Assembly: GCA_018902545.1 (NCBI GenBank) | Contig: JAHIQM010000015.1 | Location: 1-64,000, forward strand | Length of the DNA: 64,000 nucleotides | Direction: 5' to 3' | Source of the DNA: Pseudomonadota bacterium | GTDB lineage: Bacteria > Desulfobacterota > Desulfovibrionia > Desulfovibrionales > Desulfomicrobiaceae | Part shown: positions 1 through 19,940 of the stretch, piece by piece | Layout: every line of letters starts with the position of its first letter | Position numbering within the stretch: the stretch's first letter is position 1 | Program-made: the position numbers and the translations under genes | The notes under the pieces: generated by a model | Database searches by the model: none | The model's input: the letters and a program-made list of their open reading frames with translations, nothing else | Told to the model about the DNA's origin: nothing

Positions 1-140
1 ACGAGCTTGATTTCAACAAGCGCGCCGGTTTCACCGACGAAGACGACCAGCTGCCCCGCTTCTTCCGCGAAGAACTCCTGGCTCCCCATAATGTGGGCTG
101 GGACTACACCACAGAAGAACTGCAGGCCGCCAAGGTCTAG
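1..140 (+). CDS. C-terminal end of an aldehyde:ferredoxin oxidoreductase family protein (partial)
   Basis: The frame starting at base 3 is open from the window edge to a TAG at 138-140 and encodes about 45 residues. It contains FNKRAGFTDEDDQLPRFF, which resembles the conserved C-terminal segment of tungsten-dependent aldehyde:ferredoxin oxidoreductases (FNxREGFTRxDDxLPxRF). These enzymes oxidise aldehydes to acids with ferredoxin as acceptor and are common in sulfate reducers. A strong terminator follows 30 bases downstream, so this is the last gene of its transcript. The catalytic part lies outside the window, so the family call rests on this tail alone. Confidence 0.6.
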   Translation, partial: ELDFNKRAGFTDEDDQLPRFFREELLAPHNVGWDYTTEELQAAKV

Positions 141-170
141 TTTCCGGTTCCCTTACAGGTTCCAAACGAC

Positions 171-209
171 GAATCCCCGCCTGGTACATCCGGGCGGGGA
201 TTCATTTTT
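171..209 (+). terminator. Rho-independent terminator after the AOR-like gene
   Basis: GAATCCCCGCC pairs with GGCGGGGATTC, an 11-bp GC-rich stem extended by GG/CC across a short loop, and is followed by ATTTTT. It lies between the upstream plus-strand gene and the convergent CLC gene. Confidence 0.85.
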
Positions 210-234
210 GCGGTTGCCAAGCAAAATATGGAAC

Positions 235-2052
235 TCAGGCCTGCTCCTTCATGCTCTTCAAGGTTTTGGCGTAGGCCGTGAACACGTCTTCCCTGGCCAG
301 CATCCCGAGCACAGCAGTGGGATCCTGGCTGTCCACCACAGGCAACTGCGCCAGGTCCGACTCCACGAATTTGAGCAAGGCCGAATACAGGTCTTCGTCA
401 GGCCGCAGCAGCACCGCCTTGCGCGCCACGTCCCCGGCCACGAGCAGTTCACACAGCGTGTCTTCGTAAAGGACCTTGCGCAAGTCCTCCACGGCCAGAA
501 TACCTGTGATCTTGTCCTGCGCGCCGCGTACCGGAAAACACAACTCGCTCGAATTGACGATGATGTCCGTCAATGCCCCGAAATGCGTGCCTTCTTCCAC
601 GATGGACACCCGGCCAGGCTTAAAGTGCCCCTCGACCTTTTCCCGCTCAAGGATGTTGATGGTCGCGTCGCCGACGTGAGCGGGCGACTCGAACTTGTTG
701 TCAACCTGGTTCTCGTACAACGAGGCATGCCGCCCCAGGACCAGCGCGATGGCCGTTGCCAGCATGAGCGGAGCGAGCAGTCCGTAGCCCTGGGTCAATT
801 CGCAGACCATGACCAGAGGGCCGATGGGCGCGCTGGCCACCCCGGCGAAAAAAGCGGCCATGCCAACCAGGACGTACCCGCCCGGCTCGGTCACTACCGA
901 AGGGAAAAAACGATGCCCCAGGCTGCCGATCACGCCACCGCTCATGCCGCCGACAAAGAGGGCCGGTGCGAACATGCCCCCGCTCATCCCCGACCCGAGC
1001 GTCACGGACGTGGCCACTGTCTTGCCGATGATCATGCCGGCCATCATGGTCACGGACAGTTTGCCGAGCATGGCCAGCTCCAGCCAACCCTGCCCGCCAC
1101 CAAGGAGCTGCGGAAACTGGTAGCCGATGGCGGCCATGCCGAGTCCGCCAAGGGCCACCGCGGGCACGAATCCGAACCGGTCGGTCAGAGGCCAGAACAC
1201 CTTGAATTTGATGAACCGGAAGGTGTGCACATAGAACCAGCCCGTGGCGGCGCAGACCAGCCCCAGAAGCGCGTAGACAGGCAATTCGCGCATATCGGAA
1301 AACTCGAACTTGGGGATGCCAAAAATGGGCTCGGCCCCGAAAACCAGGGTGAAGAGGGAATAGGAAACCACGGAGGAGATGATGGACGGCAATAGCGCCT
1401 CGGCCTCGAAGTCCTCGCGGTAAATGACCTCTACTGCCGTCAGCGCCCCGCCAAGAGGAGCGCGGAAAATGGCCCCGAGCCCCCCCGCGGCCCCGGCCAG
1501 AAGCAGGATACGCCGCTCCTTGGCCGTCAGGCGCAGTTTCCCGGCCAACCACGAACCGCACCCGGCTCCGAGCAGGGAGATGGGGCCCTCGCGTCCGGCG
1601 CTGCCTCCGGCGGCGATGGTCAGAATGGAGGTGCTCACCTTCATGGCTGGCACCGACGGCGGAATATGGCCTTCCTGATGGTGGAAGGCCTTGATCATGG
1701 TGTCGGTCCCGTCCGTGCCGCCGAAACGGGTCTGAGGCACGAAACGGCGCAGAAGATAGCCCGTCAAGATGCCCACCGCGCCCAGAAAGATGAAAAGCAG
1801 CCAGGGGCGAGAGGGCCCGGCCGGTCCGGAGAAAAGATTCTCCCCGGCCGGGACGGGCAGGGTGTACCCGGCCCAGGTCGTGAGCAGCAGATGCTGCAGC
1901 CACTCGATAACGATGTAGAAGATCGTGGCCAAGGTGCCGGTCATGGCCCCGACCACGGCCCCCAGCGCCAACCATTTGAAATTCAGGATGGAATGGTAGC
2001 TGTGCGACAGCTCCATGGGGATTTTGAACACAGCCCGGAAAAAAGCGCGCAT
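235..2052 (-). CDS. CLC-family chloride channel/transporter with C-terminal CBS domains
   Basis: This 605-residue integral membrane protein belongs to the CLC family of Cl- channels and Cl-/H+ exchangers. It has about ten to twelve hydrophobic segments. The selectivity-filter motif GSAGREGP near residue 150 carries the gating glutamate, and the second motif GSGMSGGMFAPALF lies near residue 350. The last 150 residues look like a CBS pair (for example GILAVEDLRKVL and VLGMLAREDVF), which in this family senses adenine nucleotides. It starts 11 bp after the ribF stop, so the two are probably cotranscribed. Whether it is a channel or an antiporter, and whether it prefers Cl- or F-, cannot be decided from the sequence alone. 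Confidence 0.92.
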   Translation of the reverse strand: MRAFFRAVFKIPMELSHSYHSILNFKWLALGAVVGAMTGTLATIFYIVIEWLQHLLLTTWAGYTLPVPAGENLFSGPAGPSRPWLLFIFLGAVGILTGYLLRRFVPQTRFGGTDGTDTMIKAFHHQEGHIPPSVPAMKVSTSILTIAAGGSAGREGPISLLGAGCGSWLAGKLRLTAKERRILLLAGAAGGLGAIFRAPLGGALTAVEVIYREDFEAEALLPSIISSVVSYSLFTLVFGAEPIFGIPKFEFSDMRELPVYALLGLVCAATGWFYVHTFRFIKFKVFWPLTDRFGFVPAVALGGLGMAAIGYQFPQLLGGGQGWLELAMLGKLSVTMMAGMIIGKTVATSVTLGSGMSGGMFAPALFVGGMSGGVIGSLGHRFFPSVVTEPGGYVLVGMAAFFAGVASAPIGPLVMVCELTQGYGLLAPLMLATAIALVLGRHASLYENQVDNKFESPAHVGDATINILEREKVEGHFKPGRVSIVEEGTHFGALTDIIVNSSELCFPVRGAQDKITGILAVEDLRKVLYEDTLCELLVAGDVARKAVLLRPDEDLYSALLKFVESDLAQLPVVDSQDPTAVLGMLAREDVFTAYAKTLKSMKEQA

Positions 2053-2063
2053 GAATCCCGCCC

Positions 2064-3008
2064 TCAGACCATTCTGGCTTCAGGCAGGGCCAGGATGGTC
2101 CGGCCAAGGGCGATATCCTTGCCGATTTGCGACTTGAGCTCGTCAAGGCCGGAAAACTTCCGCTCCCCGCGCAGGCGCTGCACAAAATGAACTTTGAGCT
2201 GCTTGTCGTAGAGGTCGGCGTTCAAGTCCATAATATGCACCTCCACGGACAGCACCTCGTTGCCGAAGGTCGGGTTGTAGCCGATGTTGGCCACCGCTGG
2301 ATGGATCTGGCCTTCCAGCTCGGCCCAGCAGCAGTACACCCCGGTCTTGGGAAAAAGCTCGTCGACAAGGTGCACGTTGGCCGTGGGAAACCCCAGCAGG
2401 CGGCCGCCCCGGTCCTGGCCATGAATCACGGTGCCGGACACGCGGTAGAATCGGCCAAGCAGTGCCTTGGCCGCCCACACGTCCCCGGCCTCGACCAGGT
2501 CGCGGATGCGTGTGGAGCTGACAATGGCCTGATCGACCATGACGGGCTCAAGCTGCTCGACCCCGAATCCCTTCTGCTGTCCGAGCCTGTTCAACAGGGC
2601 GTAATTGCCGCCACGGCCTTTGCCGAAGGCGTAGTCGTAGCCGATAACCAGTTCCTTGACGCGCAGGCCCTCGACCAGAATGCTGCGCACGAAATCCTCG
2701 GGACTCATGCTCGCAAGCTCCTGGTTGAATTCGAGGCAAAGTAGGTGGTCTATGCCCAGCGACTTGATCAGTTCGGCCCTTTGTTCGTAGAGGGTGATGA
2801 ACGGGGGGGTCTTCTTGCCGGTGAAAAAACGCAAGGGGTGCGGTTCAAAGGTGATGACCACTGACGGCAAACCAAGACCGGCGGCGAGATCCCGCACCCT
2901 GGCAATGAGACGCTGATGTCCTATGTGGACCCCGTCAAAATTGCCGATGGTGACGCAGGACCCTCTTTCCAGGCCGCTGATCTGGTCCGGCCAAGTAACG
3001 CAATGCAT
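2064..3008 (-). CDS. ribF: Bifunctional riboflavin kinase / FAD synthetase
   Basis: The 314-residue product phosphorylates riboflavin to FMN and then adenylylates it to FAD. The N-terminal nucleotidyltransferase domain begins with IGNFDGVHIGHQ (HIGH-like motif). The C-terminal flavokinase domain contains LLGFPTANVHL, the expected PTAN nucleotide-binding motif. Length and domain order are typical of bacterial RibF. The ATG at 3008 is preceded by GGAGG ten bases upstream. An AT-rich intergenic stretch upstream (3009-3211) presumably carries its promoter; the CLC gene follows on the same transcript. Confidence 0.95.
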   Translation of the reverse strand: MHCVTWPDQISGLERGSCVTIGNFDGVHIGHQRLIARVRDLAAGLGLPSVVITFEPHPLRFFTGKKTPPFITLYEQRAELIKSLGIDHLLCLEFNQELASMSPEDFVRSILVEGLRVKELVIGYDYAFGKGRGGNYALLNRLGQQKGFGVEQLEPVMVDQAIVSSTRIRDLVEAGDVWAAKALLGRFYRVSGTVIHGQDRGGRLLGFPTANVHLVDELFPKTGVYCCWAELEGQIHPAVANIGYNPTFGNEVLSVEVHIMDLNADLYDKQLKVHFVQRLRGERKFSGLDELKSQIGKDIALGRTILALPEARMV

Positions 3009-3167
3009 GAAATATTATCCTCCAGGCAACAAGCTGGCTTGCCTCTATACCAAAAGAACCCGGGCTTCAACACACACGCTGGAAGGACAAAAACACCTTT
3101 GAACGCACTCAACTGATTAAAATTTCGAAAAATAAAAAATTAATCGAAAAAAACCGGAACAAAACTC

Positions 3168-3196
3168 TTGCCAAAGACACCCCGCTCACATAAACA
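3168..3196 (+). promoter_or_regulatory. Candidate sigma-70 promoter for tRNA-Leu
   Basis: TTGCCA at 3168-3173 and TAAACA at 3191-3196 are separated by 17 bp, in an AT-rich region directly upstream of the tRNA. The -35 box matches TTGACA at five of six bases; the -10 box is weak. Predicted transcription would begin about 8 bases before the mature tRNA. Confidence 0.45.
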
Positions 3197-3211
3197 CGCT
3201 TCTCACGTCAC

Positions 3212-3298
3212 GCCGAAGTGGTGGAATTGGTAGACACGCTAGGTTCAGGGTCTAGTCGGGGTTCCCCGGTGGAGGTTCGAGTCCTCTCTTCGGCACCA
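3212..3298 (+). tRNA. tRNA-Leu (anticodon CAG)
   Basis: This 87-nt class II tRNA has acceptor arms GCCGAAG and CTTCGGC, a D-arm with GTGGTGGAATTGGTAGAC, an anticodon stem CTAGG/TCTAG around loop TTCAGGG (anticodon CAG), a long variable arm, the T-loop GGTTCGAGTCC, and an encoded CCA end. A terminator follows within 10 nt, so it is a single-gene unit. Confidence 0.97.
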
Positions 3299-3305
3299 AG
3301 AGATC

Positions 3306-3341
3306 AAAGGGATTGCAGTTCGCTGCAATCCCTTTTTTCTT
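3306..3341 (+). terminator. Terminator of tRNA-Leu
   Basis: AAAGGGATTGCAG and CTGCAATCCCTTT form a perfect 13-bp stem closed by a UUCG tetraloop, with a T-rich run at its 3' side (ending TTTTTTCTTT). Confidence 0.9.
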
Positions 3342-3492
3342 TCCTGCGGCCGGTTTTCCCATCTTGGATATCAAAAGCATTGCTCAAGAGTGGCGTACTC
3401 TTCCAAATCTGAAAACTTGCCGGATCGGATGCCGCGAAAGGATAGGCCTTGGCCCGCCCTTGAAAGTCTGAGCCTGACGTGCTGGCCAATCT

Positions 3493-3528
3493 TTTGTCGA
3501 TCACGAAATACATTTCATGATCGACAAA
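3493..3528. repeat. Long perfect hairpin within the decayed island
   Basis: TTTGTCGATCA (3493-3503) and TGATCGACAAA (3518-3528) are perfect 11-bp inverted arms. Inside them GAAAT and ATTTC can extend the stem after one mismatch. There is no T-run, so it does not look like a terminator. The bases from 3342 to 3550 hold no recognisable gene; several short open stretches there match nothing I know. It could be a scar of a small palindromic element or an operator from a lost gene. Confidence 0.5.
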
Positions 3529-3550
3529 GAGGTTTATTGCGCAGGAGTGA

Positions 3551-3808
3551 GCGTCAAAAGGCCTCGTAGCCTTCGACGATATTGAGCAAGTCTGTGAACG
3601 CATACACGCCCGGCAACTGCTCAACCTCTTATATCGCAAGCCCATTGTCACGGCATCGGAAGTCGTTGAGGCCCTCGATGTGAGCACACCAACCGCCAAT
3701 GCCCTAATCAAGGATCTGCTGCGTCTCGGCATTTTAATCGAACTGACCGGGCTTCAACGAGGCCGACTATACTCCTTCGATCGTTATCTTAGACTCTTCG
3801 TTAGTTAA
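3551..3808 (+). pseudogene. Remnant of a Fic/DOC-family protein (C-terminal winged-helix part only)
   Basis: The frame is open for about 85 codons from just after a TGA at 3548-3550 to TAA at 3806-3808. It encodes ARQLLNLLYRKPIVTASEVV, then a segment reading STPTANALIKDLLRLGIL, then TGLQRGRLYSFDRYLRLF. This is the typical C-terminal winged-helix end of Fic-domain AMP-transferases, including the PTAN-type recognition helix. The catalytic HPFxxGNGRxxR domain that should precede it is absent, and there is no start codon with a ribosome binding site. It is therefore a 5'-truncated remnant, not a functional gene. A palindrome overlaps its stop codon. Confidence 0.72.
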
Positions 3809-3831
3809 GGAATCGAGTTTCCCTTAACTAA
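3801..3831. repeat. Palindrome TTAGTTAAGG-N11-CCTTAACTAA overlapping the Fic remnant stop
   Basis: Perfect 10-bp arms at 3801-3810 and 3822-3831 flank an 11-bp centre. The left arm includes the TAA stop of the Fic remnant. There is no T-tract and the stem is AT-rich, so a dimeric-protein operator or a recombination scar is more likely than a terminator. Confidence 0.5.
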
Positions 3832-3936
3832 GGACGCACCGTTGTAAAACTTGAGCCTGCCCGAAAATGGCATGGACCCGCACAAGGAACTCGAAGACGC
3901 AAACGAGTTGATGAACGGGTTCCCGCGCTGGCATAA

Positions 3937-4815
3937 TCATAGCCCCACCCTCCTTAACATCTCCACCGCACCGATCTCCATCTTCGAGAAGGCGAACCAT
4001 TTCTGGCCCAGATCTTTGAGCGATGCGCCAATGTGGTAGATCGCGTCGTCGATGATCAGGAATCGGTCATGGGCGAGCTTGAATTCCCGCGTCTCGATGG
4101 CGGGGTATTGCGCGTTGAACTTGGCGATGTCCTGGGCAAGTTGGCGGCTGGTATTTTTGGTCAGCAGTTGTACGCCGACCCCTGCCTTGCGCTTGGCTAG
4201 CAGTAGCAACACACTTTCATCCACATAGTTGTCGATGAGAATGATCCGGCGGTTGGCGGAACGGATCAAATCGCAGACAAAGGCGTAGGCTTCAAATACT
4301 TGGCCATCGAAAAAGATGCCCTGTTTGGGCTTGACACTTCTGTCTTCCAAGGCCTTAAAGACCTGTTCGAACCGTTCGTCTGTCTTGATTTCACCCGCGA
4401 TCTGACGTTTTTCGATATGATCGAGGCGGTGGAAGATATCAGCGTTGTGTGCCAGAAACTGCCGCATTTTGACGAAAGCCCGCATAATCTCGATGTTAAT
4501 TTCGATCGCTCGCGTACTCGTCAATACGGAAGAAAGCGAAGAGACTCCCTGCTCGGTAAAGGCCAAGGGCATAGCTCCACCCAAATGCTTGCGGGAAGGT
4601 ATCACAGATTGTGACACCAAGACCGATATCTCATCCTCCGTCAACTCGAACATGAAGTCGTCCGGAAATCTGGCACGATTTCTTTTCACCGCCTGCTTGA
4701 GAGCACGAGTTTCTACTCCATACAAAATGGCTAAATCGCGATCCAACATGACCTGTACTTCACGCATGGTAAGTATACGCTGCTCAATTTTAGAAGGGTG
4801 TACCAAGTCACTCAT
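3937..4815 (-). CDS. ORF6N-domain DNA-binding protein with PLD-like C-terminal domain
   Basis: This 292-residue product begins with an ORF6N domain: LTMREVQVMLDRDLAILYGV, then RFPDDFMFELTEDE and AFTEQGVSSLSSVL. ORF6N is typical of phage and mobile-element DNA-binding proteins. The C-terminal half (about 165-290) resembles a phospholipase-D-like fold, with IILIDNYVDESVL and HDRFLIIDD. The latter is an HxK(x4)D-type motif in which lysine is replaced by arginine, so nuclease activity is uncertain. I chose the ATG at 4815 because GGAG lies nine bases upstream; an ATG at 4830 lacks a site. The gene is flanked by broken genes, and its base composition looks less GC-rich than the chromosomal neighbours. 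It appears to be the only intact gene of the island. Confidence 0.8.
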   Translation of the reverse strand: MSDLVHPSKIEQRILTMREVQVMLDRDLAILYGVETRALKQAVKRNRARFPDDFMFELTEDEISVLVSQSVIPSRKHLGGAMPLAFTEQGVSSLSSVLTSTRAIEINIEIMRAFVKMRQFLAHNADIFHRLDHIEKRQIAGEIKTDERFEQVFKALEDRSVKPKQGIFFDGQVFEAYAFVCDLIRSANRRIILIDNYVDESVLLLLAKRKAGVGVQLLTKNTSRQLAQDIAKFNAQYPAIETREFKLAHDRFLIIDDAIYHIGASLKDLGQKWFAFSKMEIGAVEMLRRVGL

Positions 4816-4949
4816 TCTATACCACTCCATTATTTACGGTCGAAAAATGCGTCTCTAGTGACATTTTACACACAACCACGCTCGGCAAATGCTTCAAACT
4901 GGCGAACCGACCACAAACTGTGACCACAAGTTCCGATTTTAGGTTGAAC

Positions 4950-5198
4950 TCATATCCCCACCCTCCACAAACTCTTTGCAATCAAGGCATTCAGCTTGGC
5001 TTCTTCCCACAACTGCGCTTCAAACTCAGCCTTGAGCTGAGTGAACCGTTCCTTGAAATCGAAATCGTCTTCGTCGTCCGGCAGGCCTACATCGCGACCC
5101 GGTGTGAGTACGTAGTTGAATTCACGCACGCGTTCGATGGGATCGACGTTACAGAATCCCTTCACACCTTCGTAGTCACCGTCCGGGTTGCGCCAATT
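4950..5198 (-). pseudogene. C-terminal fragment of a type I restriction-modification methylase (HsdM)
   Basis: Read on the minus strand from 5198, the frame gives NWRNPDGDYEGVKGFCN, then FNYVLTPGRDVGLPDDEDDF, and ends ALIAKSLWRVGI. This matches the end of HsdM subunits (TYHxWR..., GFCKxA, YVLTPGRYVG, then a coiled acidic tail). A TAA stands exactly where the His of TYHNWR is expected, and nothing upstream resembles the AdoMet-binding DPPF domain. So only about 83 residues of a methylase of roughly 500 remain. No hsdS or hsdR is nearby. Confidence 0.8.
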
Positions 5199-5201
5199 TT
5201 A

Positions 5202-5614
5202 GTAGGTGCTGCGAAGATGGCGAATTCCTCGGCGGTCCCCGGCCCTGCCTAGCGTATCGCTCCCGGCAACAACTTCCGCAATTTTTGTCTCCCCGTAGCT
5301 CAGGGCGGCAGGTTTCGCAATCCGTAGTAATTGTAAGAGAAATAATACGTGAGTAATACAAGACACGGCTTTGCGATGACCCGCCCGGCTCTTTTCAGAC
5401 GCATAAACCTGACTTGGGCTGCGAGAAAAACGCTGCAGCCCAAATTTTCTGTCCATCCAAAGCGGATGCGCTCGGATCACCGACCACCTCATGCCACTCC
5501 GTCTCAATAAATGGTTGCCGACGAGGCTCAAATGCTCATAAGATAGTCCATTATCAAAAACCGAATCTGGTCGTGACGAGATGTTCTCATCCCTCCATCC
5601 TCCCGGGAGTTTCC
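5202..5614. other. Stretch without a recognisable gene
   Basis: Open stretches on both strands here show no family resemblance or ribosome binding site. A 9-bp hairpin, TTGGGCTGC (5414-5422) with GCAGCCCAA (5435-5443) followed by ATTTTCT, could be an old plus-strand terminator. The rest looks like decayed DNA between the hsdM and solute-binding-protein remnants. Confidence 0.4.
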
Positions 5615-5848
5615 ATGCGCAGAACAATGTGGCTGAGCTGGCCTTTCTATCCTTGTTCGCGCACCCCCGGATCGGCATCGCCGAGACTCTCGACATCTAC
5701 TATTTCGAGTACCCTCCCTACTACCAACAGCTTGATAACGGACAGGCCTCCGGCATCATTATCGACCTCGCCCGTAAAATTCTTGCCTCGGCGCACGTCG
5801 AGCCCGCGTTTCACTACGGAAATCGGCATGCTCCCGGGCGAACCGTAA
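5615..5848 (+). pseudogene. Frameshifted N-terminal remnant of a periplasmic solute-binding protein (SBP_bac_3 type)
   Basis: An ATG at 5615 follows GGGAG and starts a signal-peptide-like MRRTMWLSW. After a one-base shift near 5640 the other frame continues LAFLSLFAHPRIGIAETL, then LDIYYFEYPPYYQQLDNGQA and SGIIIDLARKILASAHVEP. The 'YPPYY...G...SGI..D' pattern is the start of amino-acid-type extracellular solute-binding proteins. Similarity is lost after about 80 residues, where roughly 250 are expected. The following bases 5849-6112 contain no recognisable gene apart from a 7-bp leader hairpin (GCCGCAA/TTGCGGC, 6060-6076) before the next CDS. Confidence 0.65.
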
Positions 5849-6112
5849 CCTCCCAACGCAACGTCGCGAGCCAAAATCAAAGGGCTGCCCGCCTCCTCAC
5901 GGCCAGAGCGCTCGCAAGAGTCTGCCTGAATATACGGAAGCGGATCGGCGCACACGGAATACACACCTGCGGATCATGTCGCACGCCCGAGGGATCTGCG
6001 CGGCCTTGTTCACAGCGGAGCTATGGAATATCAGACACACATGGATTGTCCGGATAAATGCCGCAACGATTGCGGCGCAAGCTCCGGCGGAGTTCTTAAA
6101 GGGAGGCGTCCG

Positions 6113-7366
6113 ATGGTCAGACTTATCGATGTGAAGATTCTCAAGATATTCGTGGGAGAGGCGGTGCGCCACAAGGGAGCACCGCTCCATGACGTCATCG
6201 TGAACGAGGCCCGCCAACGGGGTATGGCTGGGGCCTCCGTTTCCAGAGGTTTCATGGGTTTCGGGGCGGGCAATCTCCTGCACACGGCCAAAATCCTTCG
6301 TCTGGCCGAGAACCTGCCGGTGATCATCGAGATCGTGGACACGCCCGCTCGCATCGCCGAATTTCTGCCTGTGGTCGACGCCCTGGTCGAGGAGGGCAGC
6401 ATTGTGGTTCAGGACGGCCAGGCCATTTTCCATCTGCCTCTGCGCATTCGCGACGTGATGACCGAACAGGTCGTGACCGTGGGACCGCAGGCACTTTTGG
6501 ACGATGTGGTGGACCTGCTGCTGCGCAAGGAGGTCAAGGCCGTCCCGGTCATGGACGACGGACGGATCGTGGGCATCATCACCGGCGGGGACCTGCTGTC
6601 ACGGGCTCGGATGCCCCTGCGCCTCGACATGCACGGCCACGTTCCGGCCGACCTGCGCCACAGGCACAGCCACTGCCTGGAATTCGCGAACCTCAAGGCC
6701 TGCGACATCATGTCGAGCCCGGTCACAAGCCTGGGCATCACGACCACCGTCACCGACGCCCTGAAGCTGATGGCGACGCGCAACATCAAACGCCTGCCCG
6801 TCACTGCCGATGACGGAACCCTGATGGGCATCGTCAGCCGCACCGATGTGCTGGCGGCCATCGGCCGGACCTCTGCCGTGGCGGCGCATCTCGACGTCCT
6901 GCCGGAAGGAGTGCACGCAACCGCCCGGGACGTCCTGTACACGGACGTACCCACCGCCGCCCCGGACGCCCCGCTGGCCGGAGTTCTGGCCCAACTCGTC
7001 GCGTCCCCGCTGCGCCGCGTGGTCATCGTGGACGCGCACAGGAAAATTCTTGGCATCATTCACGACTGGGACCTGCTGCAGTGCTTCGTGCGCCAAAACT
7101 CCCCCACGCTGGTGGCCAGGCTCCTCGGCATCCTGACCCAGCGCGAGACGACGCCCGCAACCCTTGAAGGCACCGCCGGGGAAGTCATGTCCCGTGAGGT
7201 ACTGACTGTCAGCCCCGACGCGCCTTTGAGTAAAGTCATAAGGACGCTCCTGGACAAGAAGGTAAAACGCCTCGTGGTCGCCGACGAGGCAGGCCGCCTG
7301 CTCGGCATGGTCGACCGGGACGTGATCCTGAAGGCGCTGGCCGAACAGGACGGGCGCGCACGATAG
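6113..7366 (+). CDS. DUF190 domain protein fused to four CBS domains
   Basis: The ATG at 6113 follows GGGAGG by six bases and gives 417 residues. Residues 1-105 form a DUF190 domain (KILKIFVGEAVRHKGAPLHD; GFMGFGAG; LPVIIEIVDTPARI), a small PII-like ferredoxin fold. It is followed by four CBS repeats beginning IRDVMTEQVVTV, ACDIMSSPVTSL, ARDVLYTDVPTA and AGEVMSREVLTV, which form two Bateman modules. CBS modules usually bind adenosine nucleotides, so a cytoplasmic nucleotide-sensing regulator is likely. The target is unknown. DUF190 proteins often accompany CrcB fluoride exporters, but none is adjacent. It stands between the decayed island and the convergent motility-type genes. Confidence 0.85.
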   Translation: MVRLIDVKILKIFVGEAVRHKGAPLHDVIVNEARQRGMAGASVSRGFMGFGAGNLLHTAKILRLAENLPVIIEIVDTPARIAEFLPVVDALVEEGSIVVQDGQAIFHLPLRIRDVMTEQVVTVGPQALLDDVVDLLLRKEVKAVPVMDDGRIVGIITGGDLLSRARMPLRLDMHGHVPADLRHRHSHCLEFANLKACDIMSSPVTSLGITTTVTDALKLMATRNIKRLPVTADDGTLMGIVSRTDVLAAIGRTSAVAAHLDVLPEGVHATARDVLYTDVPTAAPDAPLAGVLAQLVASPLRRVVIVDAHRKILGIIHDWDLLQCFVRQNSPTLVARLLGILTQRETTPATLEGTAGEVMSREVLTVSPDAPLSKVIRTLLDKKVKRLVVADEAGRLLGMVDRDVILKALAEQDGRAR

Positions 7367-7384
7367 GCGGAGCTTCGATCTCTC

Positions 7385-8242
7385 CTACAGGGCAACCCCG
7401 ATCTCTTCCGGGGCGGCCATGCGGGGCGTCTCCTCATCGCGTTCCTGGATCTGGAAACGTTCCTTGATCCGCGCCAGGGAGACAAGTTGGCCTTCCCGCG
7501 CTGACGGAGTGAGGAAGGACTTGAGCTTCACTTCGAGCACCCGGGGGTTGAGTTCGCTCTGGATGGCGCGCACGCCTTCGATGATGATCTTCTGGAGCAG
7601 AAGCTCATGATCCGTGACCTCCCGGATGCGGGCGGCCAGCGGTAAAAACACGAAATTGGCCAGGATCACGCCGTACAGCGTTGAAGTCAGGGCGATGGGT
7701 ATGGTCGCCAGGACCACCCCGGTGTCATTGACCCCTGAAAGCATGCCGATGAGCCCCACCACGCTCCCCGCAAGACCGATGGCCGGACAGATGTCCGCCA
7801 TGACCCGCAGCACCCGCTCGGACTCGTCGCGGCGCTGCTTGAAAAAATACATCTCCGTGTTCAGGATGTCGGTGGTCTGCTCCCGTGAGTAGTTGTCGAC
7901 CACGAAACCAAGGGCCCGGCGCAGAAACATGACCGACGTCTCCCGCTCGTCCTCCACCAGGGTATGCAGGCCCCGAATTCTGCTCTTGACCGACAAATCG
8001 ACCAAAATTTCGACAATGGCGGCCGGTTCCTTCATCCGCGAACGATATATATTGCGCAGCACCCTGCTCACAAAATACAGGCGCTCCATGCGAAAACTGG
8101 CAATGGCCGTGCCCAGGCAGCCCCCGAAAACGATCAGAAAGGCCGACAGGTTGAAATACCGGCCCACATCGCCGCTGAGCATGAATCCGGACCCGAAGAT
8201 CACGGCGCACAACAACAGACCCAAAAGAGATTTGCGCTCCAT
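7385..8242 (-). CDS. MotA/TolQ/ExbB-type proton channel protein (MotA homologue)
   Basis: This 285-residue inner-membrane protein has four hydrophobic segments. Two N-terminal helices (LLGLLLCAVIFGSGFML; YFNLSAFLIVFGGCLGTAIA) are followed by a long cytoplasmic loop. Two C-terminal helices contain PAIGLAGSVVGLIGMLSG and TIPIALTSTLYGVILANFVF, the conserved MotA core. It should be the stator proton-channel subunit working with the MotB-like protein encoded immediately upstream. The start ATG shares its A with the stop of that gene (TGATG) and has GGAGGGG upstream, showing translational coupling. The order motB-motA is the reverse of the usual one. It may be an alternative or gliding-type stator rather than the main flagellar one. 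Confidence 0.88.
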   Translation of the reverse strand: MERKSLLGLLLCAVIFGSGFMLSGDVGRYFNLSAFLIVFGGCLGTAIASFRMERLYFVSRVLRNIYRSRMKEPAAIVEILVDLSVKSRIRGLHTLVEDERETSVMFLRRALGFVVDNYSREQTTDILNTEMYFFKQRRDESERVLRVMADICPAIGLAGSVVGLIGMLSGVNDTGVVLATIPIALTSTLYGVILANFVFLPLAARIREVTDHELLLQKIIIEGVRAIQSELNPRVLEVKLKSFLTPSAREGQLVSLARIKERFQIQERDEETPRMAAPEEIGVAL

Positions 8243-9117
8243 CACCGCCCCTCCTGCTGCGAAGCCGCCAGCCATTGACGGAATCCTTCTCCGCTCGGGA
8301 CCCTGACCGAAGGCAGCGGCTCCGTCGGATTCTCGGTACTCAAGACCAGCTCCACTCGCCGGTTGGCGTTGACTCCGTCCTCTTGCGCCAGCGGCCGCTG
8401 GTCGCCGTACCCGGCCACAAGCACCCGCGTGGCTGGCAGGCCCGCGTCATCCATCAGAAAAGATGCCACAGTGGTGGCCATGGCCACCGAGAAATCCCAG
8501 GCCCCCCGATATCCCGGCACGGCCTCACCGGATGCGCTATGGCCGACCACGGACAGGGTGTGCGGAGCGCTGCGCAGGATTTCGGCCACGGAAACGAGGG
8601 TATTTTTGACATCCCCCCGCAAGGAGGCAGTGCTGCCTTGAAAAAGCAGGTCACCCGAAATCGTCACATGCAGCGCTTTCCCGGGAACCGACTGCACGAA
8701 AATGGCGGCCTGCAGGCCGTCGCGGGCAATCAGGTCGCGCAGGCGGTCATGGAGGCGATCCAGGACCGATCCGTCCGACGGCCGGGAAGGAATGACCTCG
8801 GTCCCTGCCGGCAAGGCGTTGACGGAAAACTCCGACACCGACTTGAATTGAATTTTCGGGATCTGGAAAAGATACAGGGCGGCGAACATGATGAACATGG
8901 TCATCATCAGATCCGACCAGCAGATGACCCAGCTGGCGGGCCGAAGAGTTTCTTCCCGGGAAAAAATGTCAAAGTGTTGACCGTAAGCTTCCCCGCTGGA
9001 AAGCCGCGAATCCGGGCCTTTGAAGCCCCGAGAAGTACTTGGCCCGCCAGCTGCGGCCTGTTGGCCGGAAAGGCGCGCGGATACGTCCCGCATGATTTCT
9101 GGTGTTGGTTCTCGCAT
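8242..9117 (-). CDS. MotB-like stator protein with OmpA-type peptidoglycan-binding domain
   Basis: The product is 291 residues. A roughly 60-residue polar N-terminal extension precedes the single transmembrane helix VICWSDLMMTMFIMFAALYL. The Asp near residue 69 sits where MotB carries its essential proton-binding aspartate. The periplasmic part ends in an OmpA/MotB domain with VVGHSASGEAVPG, LPATRVLVAGYGDQRPL and NRRVELVLS, which anchors stators to peptidoglycan. The ATG at 9117 has GGAGG five bases upstream. The N-terminal extension is longer than in classical MotB and may carry additional regulation. Confidence 0.88.
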   Translation of the reverse strand: MREPTPEIMRDVSARLSGQQAAAGGPSTSRGFKGPDSRLSSGEAYGQHFDIFSREETLRPASWVICWSDLMMTMFIMFAALYLFQIPKIQFKSVSEFSVNALPAGTEVIPSRPSDGSVLDRLHDRLRDLIARDGLQAAIFVQSVPGKALHVTISGDLLFQGSTASLRGDVKNTLVSVAEILRSAPHTLSVVGHSASGEAVPGYRGAWDFSVAMATTVASFLMDDAGLPATRVLVAGYGDQRPLAQEDGVNANRRVELVLSTENPTEPLPSVRVPSGEGFRQWLAASQQEGR

Positions 9118-9255
9118 GGAATCCTCCGCCAGTGCATGAGCCAAAACCATGCCAACGCCAAAAATCTGCGCAGTCCGATCAAACGCTCCACGTGTTGCAC
9201 GGACTCACGGAAAGCAGTATGAAATCAAGAAACTCAACCCAAACCAGGAGGAATC

Positions 9256-9438
9256 ATGGCAATTGTCATCGACCACGAAGAATGCATTGGCTGCGAAACC
9301 TGTGTGGAGCTTTGTCCTGAAGTCTTCGCCATGATCGACGGCGAGGAAAAGGCCATGGTCACGGCCCCCGATTCCACCGCCGATTGCGCCCAGGATGCCA
9401 TCGACGGATGTCCGGTGGAAGCAATCGACAGGGAGTAG
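9256..9438 (+). CDS. Small [4Fe-4S] ferredoxin
   Basis: This 60-residue electron carrier has [12 protein letters not shown] (Cys 10, 13, 16 and 20) and a C-terminal CP motif (GCPVEAI). C10, C13, C16 and the C-terminal Cys should ligate one 4Fe-4S cluster. The two extra cysteines (C20 and the Cys in ADCAQDA) match the disulfide pair known from single-cluster ferredoxins of Desulfovibrio gigas and Thermotoga. AGGAGG lies just upstream of the ATG and a strong terminator follows. It is probably monocistronic, serving central redox metabolism. Confidence 0.95.
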
Positions 9439-9453
9439 CGGCCACTACGACTT

Positions 9454-9480
9454 AAAAAGGGGAGCGAGGCTCCCCTTTTT
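9454..9480 (+). terminator. Terminator of the ferredoxin gene
   Basis: AAAAAGGGGAGC and GCTCCCCTTTTT form a perfect 12-bp stem with loop GAG. A-runs on one side and T-runs on the other make it bidirectional, also serving the convergent membrane-protein gene. Confidence 0.92.
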
Positions 9481-9522
9481 CATTTCCGCAAGTCGTCGCT
9501 GAAAAAAATCACGCCCCCGCTT

Positions 9523-10131
9523 TCATCTGTGATTTTCTTTCAGCCAATTCGATGACAGCGTGATAAAATAGTAAGCATAGGTGGTTAACCCCAATATTTT
9601 AAAACTGTCCTCAATATCAATTCCGCCAGGGAACATATCCAGATCTATTATGATACTCATCCCGAAAAAGAAAAACGCAAGAATCAAAAACTTGTAGTTG
9701 GCCTGACTCAAAATAAGTCTCCAGAACTTCAAGAAAAACAGCGATGTGTACACCAGATAAAAGACATAGACCAGTATTTCAGGCAGATGGAGGTACTCGG
9801 GAAAAACCTGTTCGTGCAGCATAAGGAGGTCATCACACATGAGCATGAGTGAAAGAATCGCAACCCACCGCAAAAAACTTGTTCCTTGCGGATGCGCAAC
9901 TCCAGGTTTCAAGTGGAACGAAGAAAACAGGGTCACGCTGGCGGTAGCCATCCAGAGCAGGATACCCAGATTCGAAATCATCCCCAGATAAAAAGGTTGT
10001 CCAAGCTGAGCCAGTGGATCCATCGACAACTTTGTCATTCTGACACCAGAAGCAGCAAAGATAAGAATCACAGAAAAAATGAGCACCCACGACAAATAAA
10101 GCCATTTATGGCGTCGCAAATTATCTTTCAT
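9523..10131 (-). CDS. Uncharacterised six-helix integral membrane protein
   Basis: I do not recognise this 202-residue protein. Hydrophobic segments lie at about 10-28, 47-70, 86-104, 117-140, 147-165 and 178-195. Possible functional residues are an acidic/His cluster DDLLMLHE (100-107) at the end of helix 3 and aspartates at 163 and 165 at the end of helix 5. These could form a membrane-embedded metal or catalytic site, but this is speculation. The gene is noticeably AT-richer than its neighbours and stands alone between the ferredoxin terminator and a 240-bp AT-rich intergenic stretch (10132-10369) that shows nothing else. The composition suggests acquired DNA. Confidence 0.7.
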   Translation of the reverse strand: MKDNLRRHKWLYLSWVLIFSVILIFAASGVRMTKLSMDPLAQLGQPFYLGMISNLGILLWMATASVTLFSSFHLKPGVAHPQGTSFLRWVAILSLMLMCDDLLMLHEQVFPEYLHLPEILVYVFYLVYTSLFFLKFWRLILSQANYKFLILAFFFFGMSIIIDLDMFPGGIDIEDSFKILGLTTYAYYFITLSSNWLKENHR

Positions 10132-10369
10132 TTTAAACTATCCTTTTTTATTGCATTGATTTTTAATTTTTTAATATTGTCAATATATAACTATCGCAAC
10201 GTGCCCTCGTGCAAAAAAACCTTCTAAAATAAATTCTTAACTTCCTCTACAAAATTTACACCACCAAAATCGACCCCTCGACCGTACGATGTCGCACATG
10301 TCAAGTTCATAAAAAAACCCGTATTAAATCCGAGCACGTTGGCAGCAAACGTGAGTTATCGCCTTCAAA

Positions 10370-13321
10370 CTAACCCCCGAAATACCCAGCCCAATCCACC
10401 GGCACGCGCACGGCTTTTTCTGCCTTGTTGCGGAAAATCAGATGGCCGTGGCGCAGGCCGTAACGAAAGAGGTCGCGGGTCACGGCCACGTCCTGCCGGC
10501 AATACGCGATGATGTCGTCCACGCGGCCTTCCTTCCACCAGGCCAAGGCTTGCATGCCGCTTGCGCTCTTGGCTGCGCCAAGGGTCTCGCGGGCCAGGTG
10601 GTCCAGGGACAGGCGATAGCCAAGGGTTTGATGGATGCTGCTCAGGATGTCCAGGGTGGGCAGGCTTGTAAAATCAAAACGGCTCAACCCCCCGAGCACC
10701 GCATAGTCGAAGCGCAGGATGTTGAACCCCACCACCAGGTCGAACTCCACCAATTCTCCGACCAGGCGCGGCACATCGTCCTGCCCGTAATCACGAAAAT
10801 CCCCGGTCCCGGAATCGTAAACCACCACACAGCTGACCCCCATCAGATCGGCCCGGTGCCAGCCCCCGACCTCCTGCGCCGAGCGGCAGGTTTCCAGATC
10901 GAGCACCGCATAGCGAAAACCCTGCGGCAGCACGTACCCGGCTACTTCCGGCTGCGCAGCTGTAGACGGATCATTGATCTCGACTCGCGCCAATGCCGGT
11001 TCCGGTGGCGCGCCTTCGGCTGGCGCAGCCCCGCCCATTATCTCCTCCAGCACCCTTAAAGCTGCGCCCTTGGCGATGGGCCGGTTGCCCGAACCGCATT
11101 TGGGCGAGTGCACGCAGGCCGGGCATCCGTTTTCGCACGCGCAGTCCCGGATCACGGTCAGGGTACGCTCCAGCAGGATCTCGTACTGCGCATAGGCCTG
11201 CTCGGCCAGCCCGGAGCCGCCGGGCAATCCGTCGTAAATGAATACGGCCGCTGATCCGACCTGGGGATGAAAGGGAATGGATATCCCGCCCAGATCATTG
11301 CGGTCGGTCATGACCAAGAGGGGCATCATGCCGATGGCCGCATGCTCCAGCGCATGAATGCCGCCCATGAAATGAGCCATCTCCCCTTCCACCCGCCGCC
11401 TCACGGATTCGGGTATGGCGATCCACACCCCGTGCGTGACAAAAACCAGCGGCTCCATATCCAAGGGCACCGTGCCCAGATTCTTGCCGCCGCGCACGGT
11501 GATGCGATCGTACCCGGTGACCTGGTCGGTAACCCGCAGCTCTCCGAGATGAATCGTGGCTCCAAAAACCGTCCGGGAACCATCGATCCGCATGACTTCC
11601 GTACTTTTCTCATGCCGCACACGGGTGTAATAGGACACCGTGCTTCGCCGCGCCCGCGCCGTACCGCCCTCCAGATCCAGGTCGACGATGACGTAGGTCA
11701 CGCCCCGGTGCAGATAGACCGCACCGGGATGGGTTTCAAGCACGGCCCGGAACCGATCCACCATGCCGATGCGCTCCCCGCTGTCCATGTCCACTATGGC
11801 CACCGTCGAACCCGTTCCGCGCAAGGCCACGCCCCGGTGCGGCTGCCTGGCCTTGGAAAAGAACTCCAGCCCGTCACTGCTTTGCAGCAAAGCCCCGCTG
11901 CGGACCAGTTCCTCCACCAGCCGTGGATGATCGAGAACCAGCGCATCATCCCGGTGCAGCGAGGCCTCTGCCGCGGCGCACTCCAGATGACGGGCGGCAA
12001 TGACCGGGTTGCCCGGGTTGATGACCGCCCGTTCAGGGACAAGCGCGAAAAATTCATCGGGGTGATGCATGAAATACTGATCCAGGGCGTCCTCGTGCCC
12101 GATCAGGAACGTCGCCGCCTCCTGGGTTCCTCGGCCCACGCGGCCGGAGCGCTGCAGGGTGGCCATGATGGACCCCGGATAGCCGACCAGAATACACACA
12201 TCGAGACCCCCGATATCGATGCCCAGCTCCAGGGCGCTGGTGGAGACCACGGCGAGGAGTGATCCGGAAGCAAGGCGCATTTCGATCTCGCGGCGCTCTT
12301 CCGGAAGAAACCCGGCCCGATAGGCGGAAATGCGCTCCCGTAGCTCTCCTTCACGCTCTCCCGCCCACAGGGCGATAAGCTCGGTCATGCGCCGCGACTT
12401 GCAATAGACGATGGTCCGCAGGCCCATTTGCAGGGCCTCCTGCAACAGGCCGATGGCCTGACGCGCGGCCCCGTCCACGCCGTTTACAAGCAGCATGTGT
12501 TTCGGAGGACTGGCGGCCGTGCCCTCAAGCACCGCGTTCATGGTCAATCCGGTCAGGGCACAAGCCAGCTCCAAAGGATTGGCGATGGTCGCGGAAGAGC
12601 AGATAAACGTCGGATTTGCGCCATGGAGGCGACAGATCCGGATCAGCCGCCGGAATACCCAGGCCATGTGCGAGCCCATGACACCGCGATAGGTGTGCAC
12701 CTCGTCGACAACCACGAACTTCAGGTTGGCGAAAAATTCCGACCACTGCTCATGGGCGGGCAGAATTCCCAGATGCAGCATATCCGGGTTGGTGAATAGC
12801 ACGTTCGGGGGATTGCGACGGATACGGGCGCGTTGCGAAGAGGAGGTATCCCCGTCGTAGATGGCCGTGGTGGGTGTGGGAAAGAGGCTTGCAGCCAGGG
12901 AGCCCAGAGCCCGACGCTGGTCCTGGGCCAGGGCTTTCAAGGGGAAGAGATACAAGGCGCGGGCCTGACGGTCGCCGTGGCAGGCTTCCAGCACGGGCAG
13001 ATTGTAGATGAGGGACTTGCCGCTGGCGGTGGGGGTCGCCACGACCACATGACGCCCGGCACGGACCAGATCGACGGCCCGGCACTGATGTTCGTAGAGC
13101 TTACGAACGCCAAGCAGATCGAGCCCGCGTTGCACCGGTCCGGACCAGGAGCGCTCGGGAGTCCCGAATTGCGGCCCTTGCTCCGGAAAAAACCTGCGCC
13201 CGGCTATATTCATGGCCAGCCAAGGCGTCTCTTCCACCAGGGCCAACAGATCCGCCACGGTGGGCTCGGTCATGAAGGGCGCCCGGCCTGCATCCGGATC
13301 GCCCTTAATCCGATGGGACAT
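10370..13321 (-). CDS. MrfA/Hrq1-type DEAD/DEAH helicase fused to a YprB-like exonuclease domain
   Basis: This 983-residue protein combines two repair-type activities. Residues about 60-500 are a superfamily 2 helicase: Walker A ATPTASGKSL, motif II DEVHTYRG (DEVH), motif III SSATIANP, motif VI QRSGRVGRG. Next comes a DUF1998-type zinc region with CACENGCPACVHSPKCGSGN. The last 200 residues are RNase-H-like, with FRYAVLDLETCRSAQEVGGW, VGFNILRFDYAVL and AYCRQDVAVTRDLF, as in YprB exonucleases. MrfA and YprB are separate in Bacillus; here they form one chain. The start at 13321 lies one base after the ntrC stop. An ATG at 13273 is an alternative, since neither has a strong ribosome binding site. 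Longer readings upstream overlap the response regulator gene and are unlikely. Confidence 0.9.
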   Translation of the reverse strand: MSHRIKGDPDAGRAPFMTEPTVADLLALVEETPWLAMNIAGRRFFPEQGPQFGTPERSWSGPVQRGLDLLGVRKLYEHQCRAVDLVRAGRHVVVATPTASGKSLIYNLPVLEACHGDRQARALYLFPLKALAQDQRRALGSLAASLFPTPTTAIYDGDTSSSQRARIRRNPPNVLFTNPDMLHLGILPAHEQWSEFFANLKFVVVDEVHTYRGVMGSHMAWVFRRLIRICRLHGANPTFICSSATIANPLELACALTGLTMNAVLEGTAASPPKHMLLVNGVDGAARQAIGLLQEALQMGLRTIVYCKSRRMTELIALWAGEREGELRERISAYRAGFLPEERREIEMRLASGSLLAVVSTSALELGIDIGGLDVCILVGYPGSIMATLQRSGRVGRGTQEAATFLIGHEDALDQYFMHHPDEFFALVPERAVINPGNPVIAARHLECAAAEASLHRDDALVLDHPRLVEELVRSGALLQSSDGLEFFSKARQPHRGVALRGTGSTVAIVDMDSGERIGMVDRFRAVLETHPGAVYLHRGVTYVIVDLDLEGGTARARRSTVSYYTRVRHEKSTEVMRIDGSRTVFGATIHLGELRVTDQVTGYDRITVRGGKNLGTVPLDMEPLVFVTHGVWIAIPESVRRRVEGEMAHFMGGIHALEHAAIGMMPLLVMTDRNDLGGISIPFHPQVGSAAVFIYDGLPGGSGLAEQAYAQYEILLERTLTVIRDCACENGCPACVHSPKCGSGNRPIAKGAALRVLEEIMGGAAPAEGAPPEPALARVEINDPSTAAQPEVAGYVLPQGFRYAVLDLETCRSAQEVGGWHRADLMGVSCVVVYDSGTGDFRDYGQDDVPRLVGELVEFDLVVGFNILRFDYAVLGGLSRFDFTSLPTLDILSSIHQTLGYRLSLDHLARETLGAAKSASGMQALAWWKEGRVDDIIAYCRQDVAVTRDLFRYGLRHGHLIFRNKAEKAVRVPVDWAGYFGG

Positions 13322-13322
13322 C

Positions 13323-14699
<1,377 letters not shown>

Positions 14700-14711
14700 G
14701 TGGTATTCCCG

Positions 14712-16148
14712 CTAACAAGGCTCGGAAAAAACGACCAGGGCCTCGGCTCCCCCGTGGGGACCGTTCCTGAGAGTCATTTCCGCACCGTGAATCTGAAAAA
14801 TGGAACTGGTGATGGCCAGGCCTAGGCCTGTGCCCGTCTCCTTGGTTGTGAAAAAAGGCTCCACATAACGGTCTAGCTGCTTGGAGTCGAAACCAGGGCC
14901 AGTGTCCTGCACCAGCACGGCCTTCAATCCTTCGTGGCAGGCCGGCATGACCCGTACCTGCCCTCCGCCTTCACAGGCCTGAATGGCGTTGCTGATCAGG
15001 TTGTAAAAACCCCGGTACAAGAGGTCCCGATCACCCTGAACCAGATATCCGGACGGCAAGGCACTCTCCACCGACACCCCGTGCTCCTGCCCCTCCTGAG
15101 TCAAAAAAGCCACGGCATGGCGCACGACCTTTTCCAGGTCCACATCATCCAGCGAGGGCTGGCGAGGGCGGGCATAGTCAAGAAAATCGTTGACGGTCTG
15201 GCTCAGACGCTTGGACTCGTGAAAAATCGCTTCCAGCATCGGAACGGAGGCCCCGCCATCGGCCTTCTGACGCTTGAGCAGAAGCTCCGCGCTGCTGCGG
15301 ATGATCCCCAGCGGGTTGCGGATTTCGTGCGCGATGCTGGCCACCATACGCCCCATGGAGGCGAGCTTTTCATTCTGCAGCAACTCCTTCTCCAGGCGAT
15401 CCTTGTCCCGAAGCCTCTCGTCGAGGACCCTGTCGGCCTTGCGGATGAGAAAGAAGATGAGCCCGTACAGGGCCGCCGAGCCCAGGAAAGTGGTCAGGAT
15501 GATGAGCCGCTGCAGATGCAGCACGGTTTCGTAATCGCTGGTGATGTCCTGGGTGAATTCCAGAATGCCCAAAAGCGGTCCGGGCTGATCCCGAAAGCGC
15601 AGATCCCGCTCGGCCCGCAACGGGTAGACCGTGCGCAGCACCACATCTCCGTCCTGAAGTTTGAAGGCCGCAAGCACGTCCCAGATGCTCAGGGAGTTCT
15701 GCAGTTCAAAGGTGATCTTGCCGCCCTCGATGCCCGCCAGTACGGCTTCACCGCCAAGTTCGCTGTTGCCGACCTGCTCGGCATTGGTGCTGAAGGCAAC
15801 CTCGCTCTGCTCGTCATAGATACGCAAGTCGAGGACGTGAAAAGAATGAATGGTCGACTCGATGACCTGTTCCAATCGTTCGTACTGATCGCTGCGCTTA
15901 AGCTCCACGCGTCCGAAGCCGAGCACCACCGGCAAGGTGAACCGCCGGTAGATCTGATGATTCAGGTTCTCGGCCAGCAGACGGGCAAAAGCCTGATTTT
16001 TCTTGAGCAACGCGCTTTTGGCGTAATTGGTCATGAAAACCGACATGAGGCTGCTTGAGGCCAGAATCAGCACCAGCGTGGTGATAGACAGGAACTTGAC
16101 CAGTTGGAAAGGGTGGGCCGGATCAACGCGAAAGGGATTGAGCTTCAT
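14712..16148 (-). CDS. Membrane-bound sensor histidine kinase, partner of the NtrC-type regulator
   Basis: The 478-residue kinase has an N-terminal helix (FLSITTLVLILASSSLMSVF), a periplasmic sensor domain of about 160 residues, and a second helix near 215-240 (LIILTTFLGSAALYGLIFFL). The phosphoacceptor motif SIAHEIRNPLGIIRSS (H-box) precedes a HATPase with N-box NLISNAIQACEGGG, G1 QDTGPGFD and G2 TKETGTGLGLAI. No HAMP domain is obvious. It is read just before its response regulator with a 12-bp gap. The signal it senses is unknown. Confidence 0.93.
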   Translation of the reverse strand: MKLNPFRVDPAHPFQLVKFLSITTLVLILASSSLMSVFMTNYAKSALLKKNQAFARLLAENLNHQIYRRFTLPVVLGFGRVELKRSDQYERLEQVIESTIHSFHVLDLRIYDEQSEVAFSTNAEQVGNSELGGEAVLAGIEGGKITFELQNSLSIWDVLAAFKLQDGDVVLRTVYPLRAERDLRFRDQPGPLLGILEFTQDITSDYETVLHLQRLIILTTFLGSAALYGLIFFLIRKADRVLDERLRDKDRLEKELLQNEKLASMGRMVASIAHEIRNPLGIIRSSAELLLKRQKADGGASVPMLEAIFHESKRLSQTVNDFLDYARPRQPSLDDVDLEKVVRHAVAFLTQEGQEHGVSVESALPSGYLVQGDRDLLYRGFYNLISNAIQACEGGGQVRVMPACHEGLKAVLVQDTGPGFDSKQLDRYVEPFFTTKETGTGLGLAITSSIFQIHGAEMTLRNGPHGGAEALVVFSEPC

Positions 16149-16226
16149 GCTTTGGCCGAGTTCAAAAATGTGGATGGGCAGGACGCCCCGAAGGGGCCGG
16201 AACTCCAGGCCCCGTAAGATTTCATG

Positions 16227-17855: not shown

Positions 17856-17868
17856 GAAACACCTCCGG

Positions 17869-19050: not shown

Positions 19051-19092
19051 TGTCGTGAAGTCTCCGTTGGGACGGTTGGTGTGGGTGAAAGG

Positions 19093-19938: not shown

Positions 19939-19940
19939 TC

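What the first reader, a model, noticed from the sequence alone, without database searches (positions are those of the whole stretch)
3300..6110. Gene graveyard of mobile-defence fragments around one intact ORF6N gene
Within 2.8 kb there are a 3' fragment of a Fic protein, a 3' fragment of hsdM, a frameshifted start of a solute-binding protein, an intact ORF6N/PLD-like gene, and two perfect palindromes. The region directly follows a tRNA-Leu gene, a common integration target. This looks like a degraded defence/mobile island after repeated insertion and deletion.
Basis: partly seen in the sequence, partly recalled or inferred. Interest (0 to 1): 0.6.

Follow-up and report, generated by a model that had tools for sequence, protein, structure and literature searches.

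The report
Eroded defence island beside tRNA-Leu
Next to a leucine tRNA gene lies the wreck of an anti-virus gene island in which one gene, a candidate single-gene defence, is still whole and looks protected by selection; this is an ordinary kind of genome history with one survivor worth testing.

Summary
The tRNA-Leu to DUF190 interval is a variable slot, about 0.9 to 14 kb in eight same-genus genomes. In the same slot a relative (G009) has intact fic, hsdS, hsdM and hsdR, then ORF6N (91% identical), a decayed hsdM end, an ATPase and an intact solute-binding gene. The window lacks hsdRMS, the ATPase and nearly all of that fic; it keeps two fic scraps on opposite strands, the hsdM end and whole ORF6N. 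The solute-binding stub is a resident gene cut by an internal deletion of about 0.5 kb, not mobile cargo. ORF6N matches the phage-defence candidate PDC-S05 (E 3e-116) and shows purifying selection against G009 (27 amino-acid changes; about 60 expected if neutral). Of 45 well-flanked relatives in named records, 24 lie by type I restriction genes (21 of them between hsdM and hsdS), 21 do not. No integrase on this contig and no tRNA-derived repeat were found. Terminator type and presence/absence suggest, but do not prove, that a partly broken island passed between species. This is ordinary defence-island turnover; the interest is the survivor, apparently kept without its restriction operon.

The parts
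3212..3298 (+). tRNA-Leu (CAG), left edge of the variable slot
   Evidence: ARAGORN; its 25-nt 3' end occurs once in window 1-20000, both strands, up to 6 mismatches
3306..3335 (+). tRNA terminator hairpin, same type as in G009 and G002, different from G015, G006, G001 and G013
3493..3528 (.). 17-bp inverted repeat (1 mismatch, 2-nt loop); arms identical in G009; role unknown
3554..3614 (-). 3' end (about 20 codons) of a fic gene that is intact in G009
3611..3808 (+). C-terminal winged-helix piece of a second Fic
   Evidence: last 14 codons also present in G009
3937..4830 (-). intact ORF6N + PLD-like gene (PADLOC PDC-S05), 297 aa
4950..5195 (-). hsdM C-terminal piece, 119 bp upstream of ORF6N
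5665..5818 (+). 5' part of a resident solute-binding protein gene
5816..5847 (+). 3' end of the same gene, joined after an internal deletion of about 0.5 kb
5995..6053 (+). 3' stub of an ABC-2 permease (intact in G013)
6113..7366 (+). DUF190 + CBS gene, right edge of the slot

Best explanation
A defence island (type I restriction-modification genes with embedded fic and ORF6N genes, plus an ATPase) once sat between tRNA-Leu and the resident SBP-DUF190 genes, much as it still does in relative G009. In the window's lineage hsdR, hsdM, hsdS, nearly all of that fic and the ATPase are missing, and the resident SBP gene is cut (shown by comparison; that these were losses here, and their order, is inferred). 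The ORF6N gene stayed whole, with a signal of purifying selection against G009 (shown for the pair). It most likely works as a stand-alone defence or regulatory protein: an ORF6N DNA-binding head joined to a PLD-fold domain with an HxR-x4-D...S motif, which may cut or bind DNA (inferred from fold and conserved residues). The island seems to have moved between species when it was already partly broken (suggested, not proven).
For: Same-slot comparison with G009; slot length 0.86-14 kb in eight genomes. PADLOC names SoFic, Specificity_I, MTase_I, REase_I and PDC-S01 for the G009 proteins and PDC-S05 for the window protein. The same hsdM C-terminus lies just upstream of ORF6N in many named records. 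Selection: dN/dS 0.125 (NG86) or 0.181 (YN00); 27 amino-acid changes against 60.5 expected, lowest of 1000 neutral runs 48. PLD fold: the 50 entries listed by VIA-align have Z 13.1-8.1, nearly all over residues about 165-297; H254, D255 and S270 invariant, R256 and D261 at least 90%, in 36 sequences. Lateral exchange: G009's sister G015 has a short interval and another terminator; four-fold-site identity window-G009 is 0.815 in ORF6N against 0.598-0.749 in 32 flanking frames with 100 or more sites (binomial p 4e-4 against 0.665); the neighbouring ribF-tRNA spacer is 0.741.
Against: No integrase on contig C14 (nine matches on other contigs) and no tRNA-derived repeat. The wider non-coding control for lateral exchange is weak: 0.853 in the island against 0.816 over 10 core intergenic stretches that range from 0.578 to 0.986, p 0.02; one flanking frame with only 50 sites reaches 0.82. 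The window keeps more of the plus-strand Fic than G009, so neither is simply the ancestor of the other. Selection is measured on both branches together; with two outgroups 9 changes fall on the window branch, 7 on G009, 11 unresolved, and zero stops alone is not significant (P 0.07). The model is of moderate quality (pLDDT 75, pTM 0.41); Foldseek's first seven rows are TrmBL2, a DNA-binding protein, not a nuclease. The PLD lysine is an arginine, so activity is unsure.
Confidence: 0.82

Rival explanations
1. Vertical inheritance only: the common ancestor of the window species and G009 held the island, and G015 and the ancestor of G006/G001/G013 lost it cleanly.
For: Fragments are collinear between window and G009; non-coding identity differs little from core intergenic stretches.
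Against: Needs at least two clean losses on the gene trees; G009 has the window/G002 terminator type while its sister G015 has the other; ORF6N four-fold identity is above all 32 well-sampled flanking frames.
Confidence: 0.3
2. ORF6N is a recent leftover on its way to decay; the selection signal comes from the G009 branch or from the time before hsdM was lost.
For: Its operon partners are gone; the divergence is short; absence of stops alone is not significant.
Against: Polarised changes are similar on both branches (9 and 7, 11 unresolved). In G009 too the adjoining hsdM piece is dead (two stops), so ORF6N lacks that partner in both lineages.
Confidence: 0.25
3. ORF6N serves the restriction system (for example as its regulator) and now acts on another R-M in the genome.
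For: 24 of 45 well-flanked relatives sit by hsd genes; the genome still has an HsdM-like gene and an M+S-like pair elsewhere; phage relatives of the N-terminal part are called anti-repressors; TrmB-type regulators share part of the fold.
Against: 21 of 45 have no hsdM, hsdS or hsdR found within 5 kb; no HSDR_N, Methylase_S or G009-type HsdR match in the genome, though these searches are not exhaustive (an S-like gene was missed).
Confidence: 0.3

Closest known systems
Type I R-M loci with embedded accessory genes (PDC, 'guilt by embedding' candidates)
   Same: In 21 of 45 well-flanked relatives ORF6N lies downstream of hsdM and upstream of hsdS, with hsdR downstream within 5 kb in 15 of them; the window keeps the hsdM end 119 bp upstream of ORF6N
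   Different: here hsdM is a stump and hsdS and hsdR are gone
PDC-S05 (PADLOC candidate)
   Same: E 3.2e-116 over residues 9-293
   Different: no test of its function turned up in my searches
PLD-family nucleases Nuc, NucT, SauUSI, BfiI, NgoAVII R
   Same: fold of residues about 165-297
   Different: HxK is HxR; joined to an ORF6N head; sequence identity 10-16%
SoFic
   Same: intact relatives of both fic scraps (G009, G011) match PADLOC SoFic, E 1e-109 and 3e-123
   Different: only C-terminal scraps here; both relatives are under NCBIfam's SoFic cut-off

Membership tests
PDC-S05 | PADLOC profile match over nearly the whole protein | tested here: met
   E 3.2e-116, residues 9-293 of 297
PDC-S05 | embedded in a defence operon | tested here: inconclusive
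   in the window only an hsdM stump adjoins; 24 of 45 relatives lie by hsd genes
PDC-S05 | anti-phage activity | not testable with these tools
   needs plaque assays
ORF6N domain proteins | Pfam PF10543 above cut-off | tested here: met
   102.6 bits, cut-off 27.8
PLD superfamily | PLD fold | tested here: met
   Z up to 13.1 on a moderate model
PLD superfamily | catalytic HxK-x4-D motif (recalled) | tested here: not met
   HxR instead of HxK in the window; R at that place in at least 90% of 36 sequences; Pfam PLDc_2 under cut-off
tRNA-integrated genomic island | integrase gene in or beside the island | tested here: not met
   Phage_integrase has 9 matches in the genome, none on contig C14; six further slot frames have no Pfam match; G009's island genes are accounted for otherwise
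tRNA-integrated genomic island | tRNA-derived direct repeat at the far end | tested here: not met
   25-nt tRNA 3' end found once in window 1-20000, up to 6 mismatches
functional type I R-M system | hsdM, hsdS, hsdR intact in the slot | tested here: not met
   only an hsdM C-terminal piece

The most novel reading that the evidence does not exclude
PDC-S05 is an autonomous defence unit, an ORF6N-aimed PLD-like nuclease, that only rides in type I R-M operons; the window is a natural deletion experiment in which it outlived the R-M genes and stayed under selection after a broken island had been passed between species.
Probability: 0.35. Interest if true: 0.55.

Novelty: new member of a known kind. 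Interest (0 to 1): 0.32.

Why it matters
Genes embedded in restriction operons are being listed as defence candidates by association. A locus where the operon is gone and the embedded gene is still kept argues that the gene can work on its own, and gives a clean gene to test. The slot also shows how a defence island wears down and may spread in pieces.

Tried and rejected
Considered and set aside: a terminator role for the 3493-3528 repeat (not among the terminator-like sites) and a multi-copy repeat (it occurs in 2 of 61 genomes, window and G009). Rejected: SBP as mobile cargo. A sequence search of solved structures gave only chance-level hits. The protein has relatives in 71 plasmid records and 8 phage records, none of the phage ones covering 80% of it; this led no further. 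Papers: 'ORF6N' with 'type I restriction' gave none; 'RhuM' with 'hsdM' three listings, one read in passages (PMC3710099); 'ORF6N domain' two listings, not opened; 'PDC-S05' two papers, passages read; listings; PMC13092281 searched for five terms, none found; PMC12255303 abstract and outline. The source of the PDC names (Payne and others, preprint) was seen only as a reference in PMC13356809.

Rows dropped: 3 of 44 frames other than ORF6N, with four-fold identity above 0.94, were left out as likely antisense frames; 9 more have under 100 sites and are told apart. In one search the intergenic stretches were filtered by length, leaving 10. In one search, 35 of 80 loci had under 3 kb on one side and were left out of the 45. 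A DUF190 dN/dS was out of frame and is not used.

The genus name Desulfomicrobium was not tested; the relatives used for the slot bear handles, no names.

Full report
What is there. The tRNA-Leu gene (3212-3298) and its terminator (3306-3335) are followed by broken genes up to a DUF190-CBS gene at 6113-7366. Pfam confirms an ORF6N domain in the one long gene, 3937-4830 minus. Six further open frames in the slot have no Pfam match.

The slot. ribF and the DUF190 gene were sought in the 16 genomes of the genus, the window's included. In eight genomes the two lie close on one contig, and the distance from the ribF start to the DUF190 match is about 0.86 kb (G002), 1.3 (G015), 1.5 (G006), 3.0 (window), 6.8 (G012), 12.2 (G009), 12.5 (G013) and 14 (G001). 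Of the other eight, G011 has both on one contig but some 370 kb apart, G010 has no close DUF190 relative, and in six (G003, G004, G005, G007, G008, G014) they are on different contigs. G013 holds other cargo, then SBP and an ABC transporter (ORFs; transporter by Pfam; the rest not searched). So the slot takes varied cargo, not only defence.

The fuller island. G009 has in the slot, in order: fic, hsdS, hsdM, hsdR (all minus, open), a 14-codon remnant of a Fic on plus, ORF6N (minus, 91% identical), a decayed hsdM end, an ATPase (minus), SBP (plus, full length), DUF190. PADLOC calls fic SoFic, the three hsd genes type I subunits and the ATPase PDC-S01; it calls the window's ORF6N PDC-S05. NCBIfam calls hsdR EcoAI type, over its cut-off; its SoFic model stays under cut-off.

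What the window lacks. Window 2022-3614 aligns with G009 through the last ~20 codons of fic; then 3763-3808 and 3937-5393 align with G009 positions some 7.5 kb further on; then 5665-5818 with the SBP start and 5816-5847 with the SBP end. The two SBP matches overlap by 3 bp at the junction. The window keeps more of the plus-strand Fic than G009 (65 against 14 codons), so the window is not a simple descendant of G009's state. An intact relative of that Fic lies among hsdM-, hsdS- and hsdR-like genes in G011 (hsd names by eye).

The hsdM stump and ORF6N belong together. The GTDB scan kept the best 80 loci of at least 545. Profiles built here found a same-strand hsdM ending within 500 nt upstream of ORF6N (or overlapping by up to 200) in 28 of 68 loci with 2 kb or more upstream. 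Of 45 loci with more than 3 kb on both sides, 24 have hsdM, hsdS or hsdR within 5 kb and 21 have none. In 21 of the 24, hsdM is upstream and hsdS downstream, and in 15 of these hsdR follows too. The two closest relatives, L110 and L111 (74%), are among the 21 without. My profiles may miss distant hsd genes, so that 21 is an upper bound.

Selection. Window against G009: dN/dS 0.125 (NG86) or 0.181 (YN00); ribF gave 0.076 and 0.029. Neutral simulation with the 90 observed differences gives 60.5 amino-acid changes on average (minimum 48 of 1000 runs), observed 27; the lack of stops is not by itself significant (P 0.07). The G009 hsdM piece has two stops.

Lateral exchange. On ribF and DUF190 trees G009 pairs with G015 (starred), and the window lies outside G009/G015/G006/G001/G013; the fork that joins these five has support 93/92 and 86/90. 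Yet G009 shares its terminator type with the window and G002, while G015, G006, G001 and G013 share another. ORF6N four-fold sites are 0.815 identical (88 of 108) against 0.598-0.749 in the 32 flanking frames with at least 100 sites; of nine frames with fewer sites one reaches 0.82; three antisense-looking rows were dropped. The ribF-tRNA spacer is 0.741, but the wider non-coding control is weak. I hold lateral exchange as likely, not shown. ORF6N is itself uneven: dS 0.20 in the first 160 codons and 0.68 in the rest (NG86). No integrase match lies on the window's contig.

The protein. An AlphaFold2 model (pLDDT 75, pTM 0.41) has a PLD-like fold in residues about 165-297 (VIA Z 11.8 NucT, 11.1 SauUSI, 10.8 Nuc, 8.6 BfiI). 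Foldseek ranks the DNA-binding protein TrmBL2 first (E 6.6e-8, but rmsd 14), NucT next (E 3.5e-6), and TrmB has Z 9.6, so a sensor or regulator role is not excluded. The motif H254-D-R256-x4-D261 ... G268-A-S270 is conserved. PHROGs families that match the N-terminal part are named anti-repressor.

The rest of the genome. No HSDR_N, no Methylase_S and no relative of the G009 HsdR was found. But a profile made here finds an S-like gene next to a methylase on contig C5 that the Methylase_S search missed, and a lone HsdM-like gene on C19. So 'no type I restriction' is likely but not proven.

Literature. PDC names denote candidates found by 'guilt by embedding', with tests pending for most (PMC12988326, passages); PDC-S05 is counted as widespread in rumen genomes (PMC13356809, passages). 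R-M loci with RhuM-like or Fic/Doc genes were described earlier (PMC3710099, passages). No test of PDC-S05 turned up in the searches (listings) and the passages.

Verdict. It is ordinary island turnover with one gene worth a bench test.

Noticed in passing
window 3299-3342 and the same place in 14 of 15 other genus genomes (G010 gave no match to the pattern used): The terminator right after tRNA-Leu comes in several types within the genus (window, G009 and G002 share one), as if the tRNA 3' flank were replaced repeatedly.
   Followed up: partly
window 3493-3528: Inverted repeat with arms identical in G009 while the 2-nt loop differs; found in 2 of 61 genomes. Role unknown.
   Followed up: partly
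L099 between tRNA-Leu and DUF190: G002 has what reads as a CrcB-like fluoride channel gene in the short slot (my reading of the sequence, no family search).
   Followed up: no
L131, L128, L143, L163, L165, L188: ORF6N genes occur in tandem or with C-terminal fragments nearby, hinting at recombination of the PLD-like half.
   Followed up: no
window 3937-4830: The N-terminal half of ORF6N is far less diverged from G009 than the C-terminal half (dS 0.20 against 0.68), as in a mosaic gene.
   Followed up: no
   Followed up: partly
L219 2745-6232 (G000 contig C5): A methylase plus specificity-like gene pair; best PADLOC matches are a type II methyltransferase and mad5 / type II specificity.
   Followed up: no
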